A model generated the notes under the pieces. That model had not been told where the DNA came from. It saw only the letters and a program-made list of their open reading frames with translations, and searched no databases. The position numbers and the translations under genes are program-made. From contig CASEBK010000011.1 in NCBI GenBank assembly GCA_949286115.1, positions 1-64,000 on the forward strand: a DNA stretch of 64,000 nucleotides, in the 5' to 3' direction. This stretch comes from an uncultured Veillonellaceae bacterium. Lineage in GTDB: Bacteria; Bacillota; Negativicutes; Veillonellales; Dialisteraceae. This document shows, in pieces, positions 11,798-64,000 of the stretch. Numbering within the stretch: position 1 is the stretch's first letter; the number at the start of each line of letters is the position of its first letter.

Positions 11798-11969
11798 GCG
11801 TGCATGTATGAAGCGCAGTGCTTTTTGCAGATGCAAAGGGCTCGTCTGTAATACAAAAGGAAAATATATATGAGAATGGGGCTTTTTCTTGACTTTAGGG
11901 GGGGGAGGAGTACCTTTTATATTGGGGATTTAGAAGAAACTGAAACGCTTTACGAAGGAAAGAGATTCG
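11798..11969 (+). promoter_or_regulatory. Upstream region of the cassette with an uninterrupted G8 tract
   Basis: No gene is seen. A TTGACT box (11889-11894) and a TATATT box (11918-11923) flank a run of eight G residues (11898-11905), but they are 23 bp apart, too far for a normal sigma-A promoter. Changes in the length of the G tract would alter the spacing. The ribosome site GAAGGAAAGAG precedes the first cassette gene. Confidence 0.35.
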
Positions 11970-57139: not shown

Positions 57140-57859
57140 ATGCTGAAAGATAAGAAATACATCATCTGCGACATGGACGGCACCCTCATTGACTCCCTCG
57201 GCGTGTGGGACTCCGTGGACACGGCGCTCATGGAGCGGCTCGGCGGCTCGGCGGACCCTGCCGAAGTGGGGCCCCGGCGGGAAGCGCTCCTCCGCGAGCT
57301 CCGCGCGGAGAAAAATCCCTACCTCGCGTACTGCGCGGCGCTGGGCAGGCTCTGCGGCTCCCCCCTCTCCGGCGAAGACATCCTTGCCCTCCGCGACGCC
57401 ATCGCAAAAGACAAGCTCACCCGCGAAGTGCGGTACAAAGACGGCGCGGCAGAGACCGTGAGATACCTAGCGGAGAAGGGCTTCACCTTGGGCATCGCCA
57501 CCACCACCAGGCGGCGCAACATGGAGATCTACCGCCATGAAAATCAGAACCTCATCGCCGCCGTGCCCATCGACGACGTCTTCTCCTTCATCTACACCAG
57601 AGAAGACGTGACGGCCATCAAGCCCTCGCCGGAAGTGCACGAAAAAGTCATGGCCGCCCTCGGCGCCGCACCGGAAGAGTGCCTTATCCTCGAAGACTCC
57701 CTCTCCGGCGTCATGGCCGCAAAAAACGCGGGCATCGAAGCGGCCGCCTTCTATGACAGCTACTCCGACGGCGACTGGCCGGAGATCACGAGACTTGCGG
57801 CGTACCACTTCCAGAGCTGGCAGGACTTCCTCACCGCGGCAAAAGCGGAGCTCGAATAA
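57140..57859 (+). CDS. HAD-superfamily hydrolase (phosphatase/beta-phosphoglucomutase-like)
   Basis: This 239-residue protein has HAD motif I CDMDGTLID (Asp11, Asp13), motif II GIATTTRR, motif III Lys in TAIKPSPEV and motif IV ILEDSLSGVMAAKNAG. A helical cap lies between motifs I and II, as in subclass IA. It hydrolyses or transfers phosphate from a small phosphorylated metabolite that cannot be identified by eye. ATG 57140 follows GAAAGGA. The gene is followed by a terminator that is also the left border of the restriction-modification island. Confidence 0.88.
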   Translation: MLKDKKYIICDMDGTLIDSLGVWDSVDTALMERLGGSADPAEVGPRREALLRELRAEKNPYLAYCAALGRLCGSPLSGEDILALRDAIAKDKLTREVRYKDGAAETVRYLAEKGFTLGIATTTRRRNMEIYRHENQNLIAAVPIDDVFSFIYTREDVTAIKPSPEVHEKVMAALGAAPEECLILEDSLSGVMAAKNAGIEAAAFYDSYSDGDWPEITRLAAYHFQSWQDFLTAAKAELE

Positions 57860-57871
57860 GAAACGCAAAAC

Positions 57872-57908
57872 AAAAGCATCCCATGGAAATATTCCAGAGA
57901 TGCTTTTT
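57872..57908 (+). terminator. Terminator of the HAD gene; left copy of the island-flanking repeat
   Basis: AAAGCATC/GATGCTTT with an inner TGGAATATTCCA-like stem is followed by TTTTT. The first 19 bases (AAAAGCATCCCATGGAAAT) are repeated exactly at 63081-63099, where they again form a terminator. Confidence 0.85.
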
Positions 57909-57920
57909 GTGTGGGCAGCC

Positions 57921-58772
57921 TTACATCGGCTTAATCATGGATTCTATCAGATTGATTTCATCTTGAGATAAATGGTACTTCGCGTACAATTCTGCATCCG
58001 TCCAAGATTTTGTGAAATTTTGCATGGGAACAAATCCAAATACCAATTTTGATAAATTGATAGCACTTAATGAAATTAAGACTAAATATCTAACGAATTT
58101 GGTTTTTAGGTATCTAAAGATATTTTCTGCTTCGGCTAAGGATTGGCAATTTCCTATAACAAAATAAGAATGGGTACACACTTCATTGGGATATAAAATT
58201 TTCATAGTATTTGTAAATACTTTAAACATACCATCTTTGGATGGCTCATTTGCATGTTCCGCGGCAGTTTTGCTCATCAGAATTTTATAGGACTTAATCA
58301 ATTCTTCACCTTTGACCACTTTGTCAGGTTTTATATACGAAACCCCTTTACTTGAGTAAAGTGTTAGATCATCTGCATCGGTTTTGGTAGGTGTTCCATA
58401 ATAATTTGTTGGCAGGCCAAATGGCATTAATGGACTAACAATATCTTCAAAAGAGATAAATTTTGGAGTTAAAATTTTATGCACAATAGAAATCGCATTA
58501 TTATATCTAACTAGGACATGAAACTCATCCAATGGTCTAGTTAGCGTGGAGACTTTTCCTTGATAGTGACTTGTAAATTCACAGTTTCCAGTATAATTTT
58601 TATTTCGCAAGAAGTAGCAAACTCCTCCACTTATGCTGACAGAAGGGAAGCAATCTTTTGCATTGACAAAATCAAATAGCTTTTGAATATGCTTATCTTC
58701 CATCATTTGATTTCGAAAAGCATCTAGTCCCATACCACCAGCAAACCAGCGGGAAGGCATGATCATTGACAA
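57921..58772 (-). CDS. C-terminal part of the interrupted Eco57I-type methylase (probable target-recognition region)
   Basis: This 283-residue frame opens at a TTG and continues the protein encoded just upstream, with a frame change at a G7 tract (58821-58827). The beginning, SMIMPSRWFAGGMGLDAFRNQ, is the conserved stretch that follows NPPY in Eco57I-family adenine methyltransferases. The rest (VSISGGVCYFLRNKNY, then more variable sequence) would be the last methylase motifs and the target-recognition domain. Base composition is much more AT-rich than anything else in the window, a common sign of exchange of specificity segments. Alone it lacks SAM- and helicase motifs, so it is unlikely to be functional unless the frame is restored. 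Confidence 0.75.
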   Translation of the reverse strand: MSMIMPSRWFAGGMGLDAFRNQMMEDKHIQKLFDFVNAKDCFPSVSISGGVCYFLRNKNYTGNCEFTSHYQGKVSTLTRPLDEFHVLVRYNNAISIVHKILTPKFISFEDIVSPLMPFGLPTNYYGTPTKTDADDLTLYSSKGVSYIKPDKVVKGEELIKSYKILMSKTAAEHANEPSKDGMFKVFTNTMKILYPNEVCTHSYFVIGNCQSLAEAENIFRYLKTKFVRYLVLISLSAINLSKLVFGFVPMQNFTKSWTDAELYAKYHLSQDEINLIESMIKPM

Positions 58773-61700
58773 ACAAGTTGGGTCAATAGCTTTAGCTTGC
58801 TCAACAAATAAATTGTAAATGGGGGGGCTTGACGGCTAATGCCGGTAGTCTTTAACTGATAGGGGGGATTTCCCACAATGGCGTCGAATTTCATGGTCCG
58901 TTTTCCTTCCTGATTCCAAAAGCCGGGCGTAGTAATTTTCTTTCTGAACTGCTTGGCCTTGTGCTGCATGGCATTGATGAGATTTTCAAAATAATGAGCG
59001 TTGACCTTGACGTCGGTCTGAAAGCCGATGAGCGTGCGGATGGTAATCTGCTTGGCCATGGGGGTCTTGCAGATGACGTACATGTTTTTCTGTACCGTTT
59101 CGTTCCAGAGCTGCCGTTGCTTTTCCGGCGTGAGGTCTTCTTCTTTGAAGTCTCTGCACCGGCGGCGGAAGAGGCTGTATGTCACATAGAGGGGGTAGAG
59201 CCCCGTCTTGGAATTGATTTCCAGAATCTGTGCGCTTTCATTGGAAAAGGTGGTGGCTGTGATGGTGCCACGGTCGACGAAGCGGGGCTCGTCCAGCAGA
59301 TTTTGTTGAGTCTCATCGTAGAAGTCATAGCCGCCGAGGCAGTCGCTCATATGCATATTGACCACGCGCCACGGGGTGAGGACGGTTTCCTTGTCAGGAT
59401 TTTTGAAGCCCGCGAAGAGTTCGACAATCTTCCGCACTCGTTCCGTGGGCGGCAGTTCGTCGGCGCTCTTGGCAATGTTGCGGATACGCCGCGCTGAGGC
59501 GGTGAAAATGTCGGGGTCGTAATATTTGATGAATTGATGGAAGAGCGATTTGTCGAAGCCCTTTGGCATAAATTCTTTCCATGAATCGTCGTCGACCAGT
59601 TCCGGCAGTTTTTCTATGGTGATGTTGTCTTCGAAGGGGACATTGGCGCCGTAGATGAGAAGAGGAATGCGGATGGATACGCCCCGGAGAATGGAGATGG
59701 CCGTTTCTTTTTGCTTTTTCCGCTGCTTCAGCTCTTCCCGGAGCGCGGCCTCTTCTGCGGTGAGTTCTTTCTTTGGCTTTTTCGCCGCCTTTTCCATCTC
59801 CGCCAGGTGTTTTTCCTCATCCAGCCCTTGATCGTTGATGATGATGTCTTTCAGGGGGTCGGTCTTTTTGGTGGTGCCGACGATTTTTTTCAGCTTATTG
59901 AAATCCCGGATATCGAGCTCATCAAGCATCAGCAGTTTCTCGTTGTAGATGCTTGTGTCGTCGAAGCCGGTGCGGACGGCGCGGTCCGCATAGGTCTTTT
60001 TCAGGGTTTCCAGCATGGCGCCGGTATCGTACTGCTGCATTTCCGAGCCTTCAATGGCAATGACGGGGCAGTAATTCAGAAATTCTGTGAGCCGGACGCG
60101 GTCACCGTCGGAGGTCTTGCCCGCTTTTGTGGAAACGGTCGCGGCTTCGGCAACCATCTTCAGCGTGCGGTCGGGGGCAAAGTCGAAGACGTAGCATCGT
60201 TCTTTACTCATGCCGTTCATGGTGCAGGGGGACTGGACGCGGAAGATGGTCTGGAGGTAGCTGGCCGCGGAGGTGGAGTAGGACCCGGCCAGCATGAATA
60301 CGGCGGTCCATTCGGGTACTGTGACGCCTGTGGTGAGTTTGCCGCAGGAGAGGGTGATGGTATATCCGGTGTCGCCTGCTTCTTTGATGGCTGTCCGCAC
60401 TTTTTTCAGCGCGTCTTCGGCGGCTTCTTCCTCATCGCCGTTTCCAGCTACATTGACGATCTGAAAACCATCAGGCCCACCCGTGCCGAAGACGGGGTGT
60501 TCCTTCATGAGGCGGCTGAGCGCCCGTGCTTCTTTGACGCCGGGAACAATCCAGAGCGTGTGGTGGAAGAGGCTGCGGTATTCTTCCGTAGCGTAGGGAT
60601 ACTGGCTGCCGGTATTCTCTTCTGTGAGCAGATTGAGGAAGCTTTTCACATCGTCCTCATGGACAAAGTCGCCGGGTTTCTTCCCCGCAGGAATCGGACG
60701 GTAATCGGTATGGATATCGCCTGTCCAGACGCGGAAAAATTCCCGGAAGTTGAATGCCTTGTCTTCCAATTCGTCCGCGTAGGCGTGGTTTGTGAGAATT
60801 TTACGCAGATCGTAGGTATAGATGCACATTTCCGGCAAGTCTTCGTAGGGATTGGAATCGCCGAAATGATTTATCGGCCATTCTGCTTTGGCTTTTTGCT
60901 CCATGACGTAATCCCACGTGTAAATTCCGTCTTCGTCCTTAAAGGCTGACAGTATGTTGAACGGTGTGCCGGAGAGGGCGAGAAATTTGGCAGGCTTTTT
61001 GCTGTCCGATTTGACGAGGGCTTTGATGACGTCGTTGCCGAGAGCTGTGGTCGTGCCTTCATGGGCTTCATCGACGATGACAAGGTCCCAGTCCAGTGAA
61101 AATACGGCGTCGTTTTTGTTAAATTTTCCGCCGACCTCGGAAGAGCCGCGGAGGTCCTGAATGGAAGCAAAATAAACAAAGGGCTTTTTATCGGCGATCA
61201 GTTTCTCAATGGAGTTCCCGTGATTTTTCGAGCCGTATTGCCAATCTCCATCGTAGAAAATTTTTGTAAAATCTTCATACCATCCATCATCTACGACCGG
61301 GCGATGGGTCGCGATGATGGTTTTTCTGAATTTTTCTTCTTTGACGACCTGAAGGGCGGAGAGGGTTTTGCCGAAGCGCATTTTCGCATTCCAGAGCATG
61401 CGATTTCCTTTTTTGAATGTTTTCCGTGCCTTATCAATGGCATCCCTCTGCTCTGGGCGGAAAACGATGGGTGAGAAGGCGGGGGGCTGTACTTTTCCTC
61501 CTAAATTCTCGCGGCCTTCTTTGACGGCTTTGATGGCTTCTTTCAGGACAGGGACATCAATGGGATACCATTCCCGACCGGTGGAACCGGTCAGTTTTCG
61601 ATTGGCATACCCGGAGTTTTCCAGTACGGCATGGACTTTTTTATCGCGGAACGATTTTTTCTGACCGTTTTTATCAGAGTAAACGGCCAGCTCCGTGTAT

Positions 61701-61927
61701 TCCAGCCGATAGTCAATGCCGGCGGTATTGGTATATTCTTTGATGCGCTTCTGCGCCGCCTGATTGAGGGCATGACAGTTGGGCGTCAGCTCTTTTTCCT
61801 CTCCGGGCGGGAGGAGGATGGAGGCGTCTCCCACCTTGAGAAGGCCCTGATGCTTTTTATCATTGATGGAAATGGCATAGATCAGTTTATAAGCGAAAGT
61901 AGGCCGTAAATTTTGGGAGCTCATCAT
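58763..61927 (-). CDS. Restriction helicase/methylase large subunit, frameshifted near the C-terminus
   Basis: This 1054-residue frame has three parts. Residues 1-145 (LIYAISINDKKHQGLLKVGD, KRIKEYTNTAG, KVHAVLENSGYANRKL, TGREWYPID) look like a GIY-YIG/T5orf172-type nuclease domain. Residues about 165-640 are a type III-restriction-like SF2 helicase (FRPEQRDAI, MRFGKTLSAL, VDEAHEGTTT, ALSGTPFNI, TTGVTVPEW). The C-terminus reaches FDAIVGNPPYQ, motif IV of an adenine methyltransferase, then leaves the natural frame at a G7 run. With one more base the frame joins the next gene and would total about 1335 residues. It starts with ATGATG, overlapping the upstream stop. Confidence 0.8.
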   Translation of the reverse strand: MMSSQNLRPTFAYKLIYAISINDKKHQGLLKVGDASILLPPGEEKELTPNCHALNQAAQKRIKEYTNTAGIDYRLEYTELAVYSDKNGQKKSFRDKKVHAVLENSGYANRKLTGSTGREWYPIDVPVLKEAIKAVKEGRENLGGKVQPPAFSPIVFRPEQRDAIDKARKTFKKGNRMLWNAKMRFGKTLSALQVVKEEKFRKTIIATHRPVVDDGWYEDFTKIFYDGDWQYGSKNHGNSIEKLIADKKPFVYFASIQDLRGSSEVGGKFNKNDAVFSLDWDLVIVDEAHEGTTTALGNDVIKALVKSDSKKPAKFLALSGTPFNILSAFKDEDGIYTWDYVMEQKAKAEWPINHFGDSNPYEDLPEMCIYTYDLRKILTNHAYADELEDKAFNFREFFRVWTGDIHTDYRPIPAGKKPGDFVHEDDVKSFLNLLTEENTGSQYPYATEEYRSLFHHTLWIVPGVKEARALSRLMKEHPVFGTGGPDGFQIVNVAGNGDEEEAAEDALKKVRTAIKEAGDTGYTITLSCGKLTTGVTVPEWTAVFMLAGSYSTSAASYLQTIFRVQSPCTMNGMSKERCYVFDFAPDRTLKMVAEAATVSTKAGKTSDGDRVRLTEFLNYCPVIAIEGSEMQQYDTGAMLETLKKTYADRAVRTGFDDTSIYNEKLLMLDELDIRDFNKLKKIVGTTKKTDPLKDIIINDQGLDEEKHLAEMEKAAKKPKKELTAEEAALREELKQRKKQKETAISILRGVSIRIPLLIYGANVPFEDNITIEKLPELVDDDSWKEFMPKGFDKSLFHQFIKYYDPDIFTASARRIRNIAKSADELPPTERVRKIVELFAGFKNPDKETVLTPWRVVNMHMSDCLGGYDFYDETQQNLLDEPRFVDRGTITATTFSNESAQILEINSKTGLYPLYVTYSLFRRRCRDFKEEDLTPEKQRQLWNETVQKNMYVICKTPMAKQITIRTLIGFQTDVKVNAHYFENLINAMQHKAKQFRKKITTPGFWNQEGKRTMKFDAIVGNPPYQLKTTGISRQAPPFTIYLLSKLKLLTQLVCQ

Positions 61928-62913
61928 GCTTTTTCCCCTTTCAGTAAGGAGTAATAGGTCAGAATTGTTTTGGAACGCCAGTCTTTGATTTTACATAGGG
62001 TGGCATTTGGAATGGGCGGCGTATACGGTTTTATAAGTTCATCGGGGGTGTCATAAAAAATATCCGTTTTTATAAATTCCTCAGGAACCGGCCGGACGGG
62101 AGGGCTGCATGTGAATGCGTCCATTTGCCAGAGATTCCATGAAATAATCGTCGCGGCTCTTCTCATCTCCCAAAACGTTGGGGCACGGGATATGCTATCG
62201 CGGAAGTATTCCAGAAAACTAAGAAAAAGGTTCAGCCGGGCAAGGAGCAAATTATCTCCCTGATATTCATAGCCGTATACGCTTTCCAATGCGCGGTACG
62301 CCCAAAACAGCCAGTCTTCTTCTGCATTCGTGTTTTCGGATATAATTCTGAATTTTCTGTCAAGGAGGCCGATGCGGTCAGGCAGGGGGATTGGCGCTCC
62401 TGTGGAGACGTCATACCGACTTACAAGGTAAGGCGCCTCTCCGCAAGAAATTTCCATGCGCTTGGCGTCAGCGTATTTTTGCCAGGTTTTATTTTTATCG
62501 TCAGGGAATGTAATTTTCCCTTTTTGTGTGATCCATGTGGTGCCGACGGACTGATTGAACACATCCGGCTTGCCAAACCACTTTTCGTCAATCAGATTGT
62601 TTTGGGCATTGCAAATCCATGCGGGAGTGAAAACTTCCGCCTTGTTTTTGGTCCGGTCGCTTTTTTGATGGTCTGCTTTCTGTACACGGGTCTGAATCAG
62701 TTTCGCATAGGAACCGGAAAGGAGACTCGGATAGATTTGTTCCGTTGCCTGATAGGCATCCCCATAGGCCGCATAATCATTACTGGCCCAGATGATAAAT
62801 TTTTTTGTGGTCTGATCAGTCAGAAGGATTTTAATCAGCCGGGTATCCCACAAAGCGGATACATTTTCCGTATCCGCCGGCATCGGCATTTCAGTGATTG
62901 CAGAGAGTGGCAT
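61924..62913 (-). CDS. Restriction-modification methylase subunit (SAM-binding half)
   Basis: This 329-residue protein contains KAEVFTPAWICNAQNNLID, typical of the N-terminal part of N6-adenine methylases, and EISCGEAPYLVSRYD, a motif I-like glycine-rich SAM-binding loop. It also has YGYEYQGDNLLLARLNL and WNLWQMDAF, which match proteins annotated as restriction endonuclease subunit M. It lacks the catalytic NPPY, which is in the next gene product, so the two must work together. It starts the operon, with AAAAGGG before ATG 62913, and overlaps the large gene by four bases. It seems intact. Confidence 0.78.
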   Translation of the reverse strand: MPLSAITEMPMPADTENVSALWDTRLIKILLTDQTTKKFIIWASNDYAAYGDAYQATEQIYPSLLSGSYAKLIQTRVQKADHQKSDRTKNKAEVFTPAWICNAQNNLIDEKWFGKPDVFNQSVGTTWITQKGKITFPDDKNKTWQKYADAKRMEISCGEAPYLVSRYDVSTGAPIPLPDRIGLLDRKFRIISENTNAEEDWLFWAYRALESVYGYEYQGDNLLLARLNLFLSFLEYFRDSISRAPTFWEMRRAATIISWNLWQMDAFTCSPPVRPVPEEFIKTDIFYDTPDELIKPYTPPIPNATLCKIKDWRSKTILTYYSLLKGEKA

Positions 62914-63078
62914 TCTTTTTTCCCTTTTGTCATGTGATTACGGATTTTCTTCATTATACATTATCTGTAAGCGCTCTCTGTAAAATATGAAGCATTTGTA
63001 CAGCATATAAGCTCCAATTTTATGAGGGGGGAGGGGAAAAAGTTTGCTCCGGGTGATTCGTTTCGGAAAAGACACAGC
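62914..63078 (-). promoter_or_regulatory. Upstream region of the restriction-modification operon
   Basis: On the minus strand TATAAT (62953-62958) lies about 40 bases before the first gene. The best -35 candidate, TTTACA, is 20 bp away, so the promoter is weak or regulated. No gene is seen. Confidence 0.45.
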
Positions 63079-63118
63079 AAAAAAGCATCCCATGGAAATG
63101 TTTTCCGGGGATGCTTTT
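63079..63118 (-). terminator. Terminator of the aldolase-like gene; right copy of the island-flanking repeat
   Basis: AAAAGCATCC/GGATGCTTTT with an inner GGAAA/TTTCC-type stem has T residues on the minus strand (from the A6 run at 63079-63084). Its first 19 bases after the A run are identical to the terminator at 57872-57890. Confidence 0.85.
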
Positions 63119-63130
63119 CGCGTGGCTGTT

Positions 63131-64000
63131 TTACTTGTGTTCCGGAAGGATGGCGGCGAGGGCTTCGATGTCTGCTTCTTCGGTCGCCCAAGAGGTCGCA
63201 AAGCGGACGGCGTAGCGGCCGTCTTTCGTGGGCTCCCAGATCTCAAACTGCGCGTGTTTTCCGATCTCGTCCATTTCCTCTTTCGTGAGGACGACGAACT
63301 GCTGGTTCGTGGGGGAGTCGATGAAAAATTCGTAGCCTCTCTCTGCGAAGAGCTGCTTCAGTTTCATCGCCATGTGGATGGCGTGGCGGCTGATGTGGAA
63401 GTAGAGGCCGTCCGTGAAGAGGGCGTCGAACTGCACGCCGCACAGGCGGCCTTTCGCAAAGAGCGCGCCGTGCTGCTTGATGTGGGTGAAGAAATGGTCC
63501 GGTGCGCCGTGGGGGAAGACCAACGCTTCGCCGCAGAGGGCACCCACTTTCGTGCCGCCGATGTAGAAGACGTCTGCGAGGCGGGCGATGTCGGGGAGAG
63601 TCACGTCCGCAGCGGGGCTCATGAGGCCGTAGCCGAGGCGCGCGCCGTCGATGTAGAGGGGGAGATGATAGGCGTCGCACACGCGGCGGAGGGCGGTGAG
63701 CTCGTCTTTTCCGTAGAGGGTGCCGTACTCGGTGGGGTAGGAGATGTAGACCATGCCGGGGAAGACCATCGCCGCGTGGTTGCCGTCGGCGTAGTAGGCC
63801 GCAAGGTACGCTTCGAGGTCTGCCGCGTCGAGCTTGCCGTCCCGGCCGGGGAGGGTGAGCACCTTGTGGCCGCTGTGCTCGATGGCGCCGGCTTCGTGCA
63901 CGGCGATGTGGCCGGTCTCGCAGGCCACGACGCCTTCATAGGAGCGGAGGTACGCGGAGATGACGGTCTCGTTCGTCTGGGTGCCTCCGGCGAGGAAGTA
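63131..64000 (-). CDS. Threonine aldolase-like PLP enzyme (5' end outside the window)
   Basis: At least 289 C-terminal residues are present; the frame is still open at 64000 (FLAGGTQTNETVISAYLR). ETGHIAVHEAGAIEHSGHKV, GLPLYIDGARLGYGLMSP-type sequence (LPLYIDGARLGYGL) and YIGGTKVGALCGEALVFP, with the PLP lysine in GGTK, are typical of low-specificity L-threonine aldolase/beta-eliminating lyase. The reaction is threonine to glycine and acetaldehyde. The protein ends ...ALAAILPEHK, then a terminator follows. It is convergent with the HAD gene across the restriction-modification island. Confidence 0.9.
   Translation of the reverse strand, partial: YFLAGGTQTNETVISAYLRSYEGVVACETGHIAVHEAGAIEHSGHKVLTLPGRDGKLDAADLEAYLAAYYADGNHAAMVFPGMVYISYPTEYGTLYGKDELTALRRVCDAYHLPLYIDGARLGYGLMSPAADVTLPDIARLADVFYIGGTKVGALCGEALVFPHGAPDHFFTHIKQHGALFAKGRLCGVQFDALFTDGLYFHISRHAIHMAMKLKQLFAERGYEFFIDSPTNQQFVVLTKEEMDEIGKHAQFEIWEPTKDGRYAVRFATSWATEEADIEALAAILPEHK

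What the first reader, a model, noticed from the sequence alone, without database searches (positions are those of the whole stretch)
57872..63118. Restriction-modification island bracketed by duplicated terminator sequences
AAAAGCATCCCATGGAAAT occurs at 57872-57890 and 63081-63099 in the same orientation. The rest of both hairpins (to about 57908 and 63118, ending ...GATGCTTTT) is also alike. Between them lies only the minus-strand restriction operon. Without the island the HAD gene and the aldolase gene would converge on a single bidirectional terminator, which suggests insertion at, and duplication of, that terminator.
Basis: partly seen in the sequence, partly recalled or inferred. Interest (0 to 1): 0.6.

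Follow-up and report, generated by a model that had tools for sequence, protein, structure and literature searches.

The report
Restriction system inserted between duplicated terminators
A DNA-restriction gene pair appears to have landed in the short gap between two facing genes, ending up with a copy of the original stop-of-transcription hairpin on each side; this is a neat but already described way for such genes to move.

Summary
The 19-mer occurs at 57872 and 63081 and nowhere else in the 1.86-Mb genome, even allowing 3 mismatches. Both copies sit in stable bidirectional hairpins that are 33/36 identical. Between them lie only an M gene and a large restriction-methylase gene: low GC and frame-broken in this assembly. 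A congener (G001) has the HAD and aldolase genes directly convergent on ONE terminator. A second congener (G002) carries other cargo at the same site, with two UNLIKE terminators. T1 and T2 resemble each other more than either resembles G001's hairpin, so the duplication looks lineage-specific rather than ancestral with loss in G001. Best reading: an R-M operon inserted at, and duplicated, the terminator. This is a case of the R-M insertion with long target duplication described by Kobayashi's group. Limits: a single empty-site genome, of another species; similarity outside the hairpin is weak; the enzymology is unknown. Two relatives (Prevotellaceae, Cyclobacterium) also carry genome-unique direct repeats across the operon, but enrichment over control is not significant (p 0.14).

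The parts
57140..57859 (+). left neighbour: HAD-family hydrolase gene
   Evidence: Pfam HAD_2 2.6e-25; orthologues in G001 73% and G002 76% identical
57872..57908 (.). T1: terminator hairpin copy between HAD end and R-M end
   Evidence: 33/36 identical to T2
57921..58772 (-). C-terminal part (methylase remainder and putative target-recognition region) of the restriction-methylase gene, out of frame with the N part; GC 0.34
   Evidence: PADLOC MTase_II 2.3e-31 and REase_MTase_IIG 6.9e-26; Pfam Eco57I residues 1-42
58821..58827 (.). run of seven G (+ strand) at the frame break and at the GC change
   Evidence: G/C runs at this place in the 50 relatives where the motif was found are at most 5
58763..61927 (-). 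N-terminal part of restriction-methylase: weak T5orf172 (GIY-YIG type, by recall) region, ResIII helicase, start of Eco57I methylase (GNPPY)
61924..62913 (-). separate methyltransferase gene (M), first gene of the operon
   Evidence: PADLOC MTase_II 9.9e-99; no Pfam match up to E 1
62914..63062 (-). upstream region of the R-M operon, GC 0.376; promoter expected here, none listed by the scanner
63081..63118 (.). T2: terminator hairpin copy between R-M upstream region and aldolase end
63131..64000 (-). right neighbour: aldolase-type gene (beta-eliminating lyase family), runs off the window
   Evidence: Pfam Beta_elim_lyase 2.4e-12; G001 76%, G002 77% identical

Best explanation
A horizontally acquired R-M operon (about 5.14 kb: upstream region, M gene, restriction-methylase gene, no transposase or integrase gene seen) inserted into the roughly 60-bp gap between the convergent HAD and aldolase genes, in the lineage of this species. 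The insertion left a copy of the bidirectional terminator on each side. T1 now stops HAD transcription on + and R-M transcription on -; T2 stops the aldolase transcript before it runs into the R-M operon. So neither neighbour lost its terminator and the island is insulated, which would make the site tolerant of insertion. Shown: the two copies, their uniqueness in the genome, the empty site with one terminator in a congener, the foreign composition. Inferred: that duplication and insertion were one event (long target duplication, or single-crossover integration of a circle carrying a like terminator), and terminator function.
For: Two copies only in the genome. Single terminator at the empty site in G001. 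T1/T2 hairpins 33/36 identical, against 27/35 and 27/34 with G001's. G001's terminator resembles T1 and T2 beyond all 500 shuffles, so it is probably the orthologue of their ancestor. GC: M 0.469, restriction-methylase 0.521 and 0.341, neighbours 0.63-0.64. The restriction-methylase was found in 1 of the 397 other genomes of a phylum sample (G988), but in 37 of 399 genomes of the family of G300, G300 included. The R-M protein ends in its family's usual tail (IKPM), and the T1 region begins just after. The family sits on plasmids (85 of 72,556 records), a plausible vehicle.
Against: One empty-site genome only, from another species (HAD 73% identical). Flank similarity outside the hairpin is weak, so the duplicated unit may be the hairpin alone, or the flanks have decayed. 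The two copies are not identical, so the event is not recent. Most relatives of this operon show no flanking repeat: 88 of 90 tested.
Confidence: 0.75

Rival explanations
1. The island is ancestral in the genus; G001 lost it by deletion between the direct repeats, which also leaves one terminator.
For: Deletion between direct repeats gives the same single-copy pattern.
Against: T1 and T2 are closer to each other (33/36) than to G001's hairpin (27/35, 27/34), which would need gene conversion. G002 lacks the operon at this site too and has other cargo there. The R-M genes have foreign composition.
Confidence: 0.1
2. The R-M DNA arrived with its own copy of this terminator, and a single crossover at the shared hairpin (Campbell type) put it between two copies. 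The repeat is then recombination homology, not a target duplication.
For: Only the hairpin core is strongly alike. A circle with one like terminator gives exactly this structure. The family is plasmid-borne.
Against: No relative was seen with this terminator behind the operon, though the hairpin itself was sought in the own genome only. About 37 nt is short for homologous recombination (recalled knowledge). T1 and T2 both resemble the congener's native terminator.
Confidence: 0.12
3. Independent terminators that look alike by chance or by common terminator style.
For: Like hairpins do flank the operon in L087, in a group where terminators look alike.
Against: Best of 861 pairs, 0 of 2000 shuffles, no third copy in the genome.
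Confidence: 0.03

Closest known systems
R-M insertion with long target duplication (Nobusato et al. 2000; Furuta et al. 2010, both known here only as citations in PMC3031569 and by recall)
   Same: R-M unit without transposase, flanked by a direct repeat of which the empty site in a related genome has one copy; [quoted passage not shown]
   Different: Here the duplicated unit is a bidirectional terminator between convergent genes, the copies have diverged, and the comparison is between species, not strains.
Type IIG-like restriction-methylase with separate M gene (PADLOC REase_MTase_IIG, Pfam Eco57I)
   Same: T5orf172-like region, ResIII helicase, Eco57I methylase, C-terminal recognition region; an M gene match lies in the same locus in 76 of 80 fetched relatives.
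   Different: Window copy is broken into two frames, whereas 72 of 74 relatives with a C-part match are open through.
Genomic islands at tRNA or ncRNA 3' ends (recalled)
   Same: Duplicated 3' end with a terminator at both ends of the cargo.
   Different: No integrase seen, and the site is a protein-gene terminator.

Membership tests
[quoted passage not shown]
   G001 C16: HAD and aldolase adjacent; another species, not a strain
R-M insertion with long target duplication | The empty site has one copy of the flanking repeat | tested here: met
   one hairpin, about L007 2233-2271, in a 55-bp intergenic gap
R-M insertion with long target duplication | Repeat of tens to hundreds of bp comprising target sequence on both sides | tested here: inconclusive
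   hairpin core 36-38 nt clear; extension to about 66 nt (57858-57923 / 63067-63133) only marginal
R-M insertion with long target duplication | No transposase or integrase in the insert | tested here: met
   three main ORFs are R-M; small ORFs listed but not scanned
IS-flanked composite transposon | IS copies at both ends | tested here: not met
   repeat is a short hairpin found twice in the genome
Type IIG restriction-methylase | Nuclease and methylase in one polypeptide | tested here: inconclusive
   domains present, but reading frame broken in this assembly
Type IIG restriction-methylase | Cleavage and methylation activity | not testable with these tools
   needs methylome or assay

The most novel reading that the evidence does not exclude
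Bidirectional terminators serve as the entry site of a minimal, transposase-free R-M cassette: the operon moves by recombination at terminator hairpins, so that each landing leaves a terminator on both sides and insulates cargo and neighbours. Two other members of this R-M family (L103, L065) also lie between repeats found nowhere else in their genomes, one of them ending in a terminator-like hairpin.
Probability: 0.1. Interest if true: 0.65.

Novelty: new member of a known kind. Interest (0 to 1): 0.33.

Why it matters
It is a clean three-genome case of how restriction genes can enter a compact genome without harming neighbours: the gap between convergent genes takes different cargo in different species, and in this one each side keeps a terminator. 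If the terminator itself were the recombination site, it would explain how R-M genes without transposases move.

Tried and rejected
Chance or common terminator style: rejected. Generality of flanking repeats: 67 operons tested of 81 (window plus 80 relatives; 14 dropped for a missing M, wrong order or contig end) gave 3 clear cases (window, L103, L065). A second batch of 28 tested of 31 fetched gave 0; 4 of the 28 repeat earlier loci. So 2 of 90 relatives, against 2 of 435 same-locus control pairs and 0 of 400 cross-locus pairs (the control asked z above 8 as well, and used 15 shuffles instead of 60); Fisher p 0.14. Not established. Some relatives are probably near duplicates of each other (L043/L044), which weakens the count further. 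An earlier, laxer scoring gave high scores in AT-rich loci; L046 stood at z 7.9 there and fell to -0.8. L103's repeat proved to be the 3' end of a conserved Prevotella noncoding unit next to gene X, so its layout differs from the window's. The MjaI-type R-M of G001 at purL/TSCPD has no comparable flanking repeat (alignment score 12.0, no shuffle run). Phase variation of the restriction-methylase by the seven-base tract: possible, but the tract is not conserved in relatives and assembly error cannot be excluded. Rfam: no match for L103 or L065, and no credible one in the window. PDB by sequence: none. Papers: terms for duplicated terminators, convergent-gene insertion sites and the T5orf172/Eco57I pair returned nothing.

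Full report
Observation. In the draft genome of 1.86 Mb no third copy exists within 3 mismatches, nor any other AAAGCATC..GATGCTTT hairpin. All four strands fold with z between -4.3 and -5.9. T-tracts read from the sequence: five T on + at T1, four on - at T1, six on - at T2. The stock scanner lists neither, probably because its T-tract must follow the stem. Shuffle and window-wide comparisons put the resemblance far beyond chance.

What lies between. Reading on the minus strand: an M gene (61924-62913; PADLOC MTase_II 9.9e-99) and a large gene whose N part has a weak T5orf172 match, a ResIII helicase and the start of an Eco57I methylase, and whose C part (57921-58772) carries the rest in another frame. 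The frame changes at or near a run of seven G on the + strand (58821-58827), where GC falls from 0.52 to 0.34. The two parts have different nearest relatives: N part 59.6% to L048, C part 56.9% to L094. So a recognition region of other origin was probably joined there; whether the frame break is decay, phase variation or assembly error is open. Of 80 relatives fetched, 74 have a C-part match and 72 of these read through in one frame; L059 and L100 do not, and L100's match ends at the contig end. The protein keeps the family's usual tail, so the operon is complete up to T1.

Comparison with relatives. The family sample holds 12 genomes including the window's own; HAD orthologues at E up to 1e-30 are in 7, and the genus sample has 3 genomes. 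G001: HAD and aldolase genes face each other across 55 bp with one strong bidirectional hairpin. G002: the same two genes are separated by about 2.5 kb of other genes (proB paralogue, ybaK-like, LysR; names by recall), with two unlike terminators. Of these two, the aldolase-side one resembles G001's, T1 and T2 better than the HAD-side one does. The best other proB match in each of the three genomes is 45-46% identical and elsewhere. So the gap is a variable site, and only the R-M case shows a duplicated terminator. The three-way alignment is.

Direction of change. Hairpin identity is 33/36 for T1-T2 against 27/35 and 27/34 with G001, which favours duplication after the split from G001 and speaks against loss in G001. 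Over the whole gap the figures are closer (T1-T2 46/60, T1-G001 38/55, T2-G001 43/54), which is a result against a simple reading. Outside the hairpin the flanks of T1 and T2 are alike only marginally. I therefore claim duplication of the terminator, and only suggest duplication of the whole gap (about 66 nt).

Mechanism. The simplest account is acquisition of the operon, perhaps by plasmid (85 of 72,556 plasmid records hold a relative of the N part, 33 over at least 80% of it; 5 of 50,697 phage records, none over 80%), and insertion at the terminator with duplication. This matches what the Kobayashi group described; [quoted passage not shown] Single-crossover entry by a like terminator is a live alternative.

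Is it general? In 90 distinct relatives tested (66 of 80, 24 new), two further operons lie between direct repeats: L103 (Prevotellaceae MAG, 67 nt, 90%) and L065 (Cyclobacterium MAG, 56 nt, 79%). Each repeat occurs exactly twice in its own genome. L103's right copy ends in a hairpin (z -2.6), while its left copy folds no better than shuffles; L065's repeats do not fold better than shuffles. Control pairs pass in 2 of 435 and 0 of 400; p is 0.14. Suggestive, not shown.

Verdict. It is a tidy new instance of a known kind of event.

Noticed in passing
window 58821-58827 and 57921-58822: Frame break of the restriction-methylase at a seven-base G/C run, at the border of a GC 0.34 segment whose nearest relatives differ from those of the N part: a swapped recognition region, possibly phase-variable.
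   Followed up: partly
L040 2494-4418 (G001 C16): In the congener, a different R-M pair (MjaI-type endonuclease and N6/N4 methylase, convergent) sits between purL and the TSCPD-like gene, two genes away from the empty site; no clear flanking repeat.
   Followed up: partly
L039 2203-4560 (G002 C10): Same HAD-aldolase gap holds a proB paralogue, a ybaK-like gene and a LysR regulator with two unlike terminators; no other proB match above 46% in the three genomes.
   Followed up: partly
L103 1976-2042 and 7666-7732: 67-nt direct repeat: the 3' end of a conserved Prevotella noncoding unit with terminator (no Rfam match); a partial copy closes a DpnI-type gene upstream of the R-M operon. A relative of neighbouring gene X lies beside the unit in 3 of 6 other genomes checked (L150, L152, L154).
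   Followed up: partly
L065 4613-4668 and 9977-10032: 56-nt direct repeat (79%) at both ends of the R-M operon in a Cyclobacterium MAG, only two copies in the 6.1-Mb genome.
   Followed up: partly
L087, upstream and downstream of the R-M operon: 25-nt terminator-like hairpins nearly alike on both sides of the operon; may just reflect common terminator style in that group.
   Followed up: no
L186 (G988 C37) around 3272: The only relative found in the window's own phylum sample is also in two frames, broken at another place (about residue 346).
   Followed up: no
window 11898-11905: Run of eight G, the only other G/C run of 7 or more in the window.
   Followed up: no
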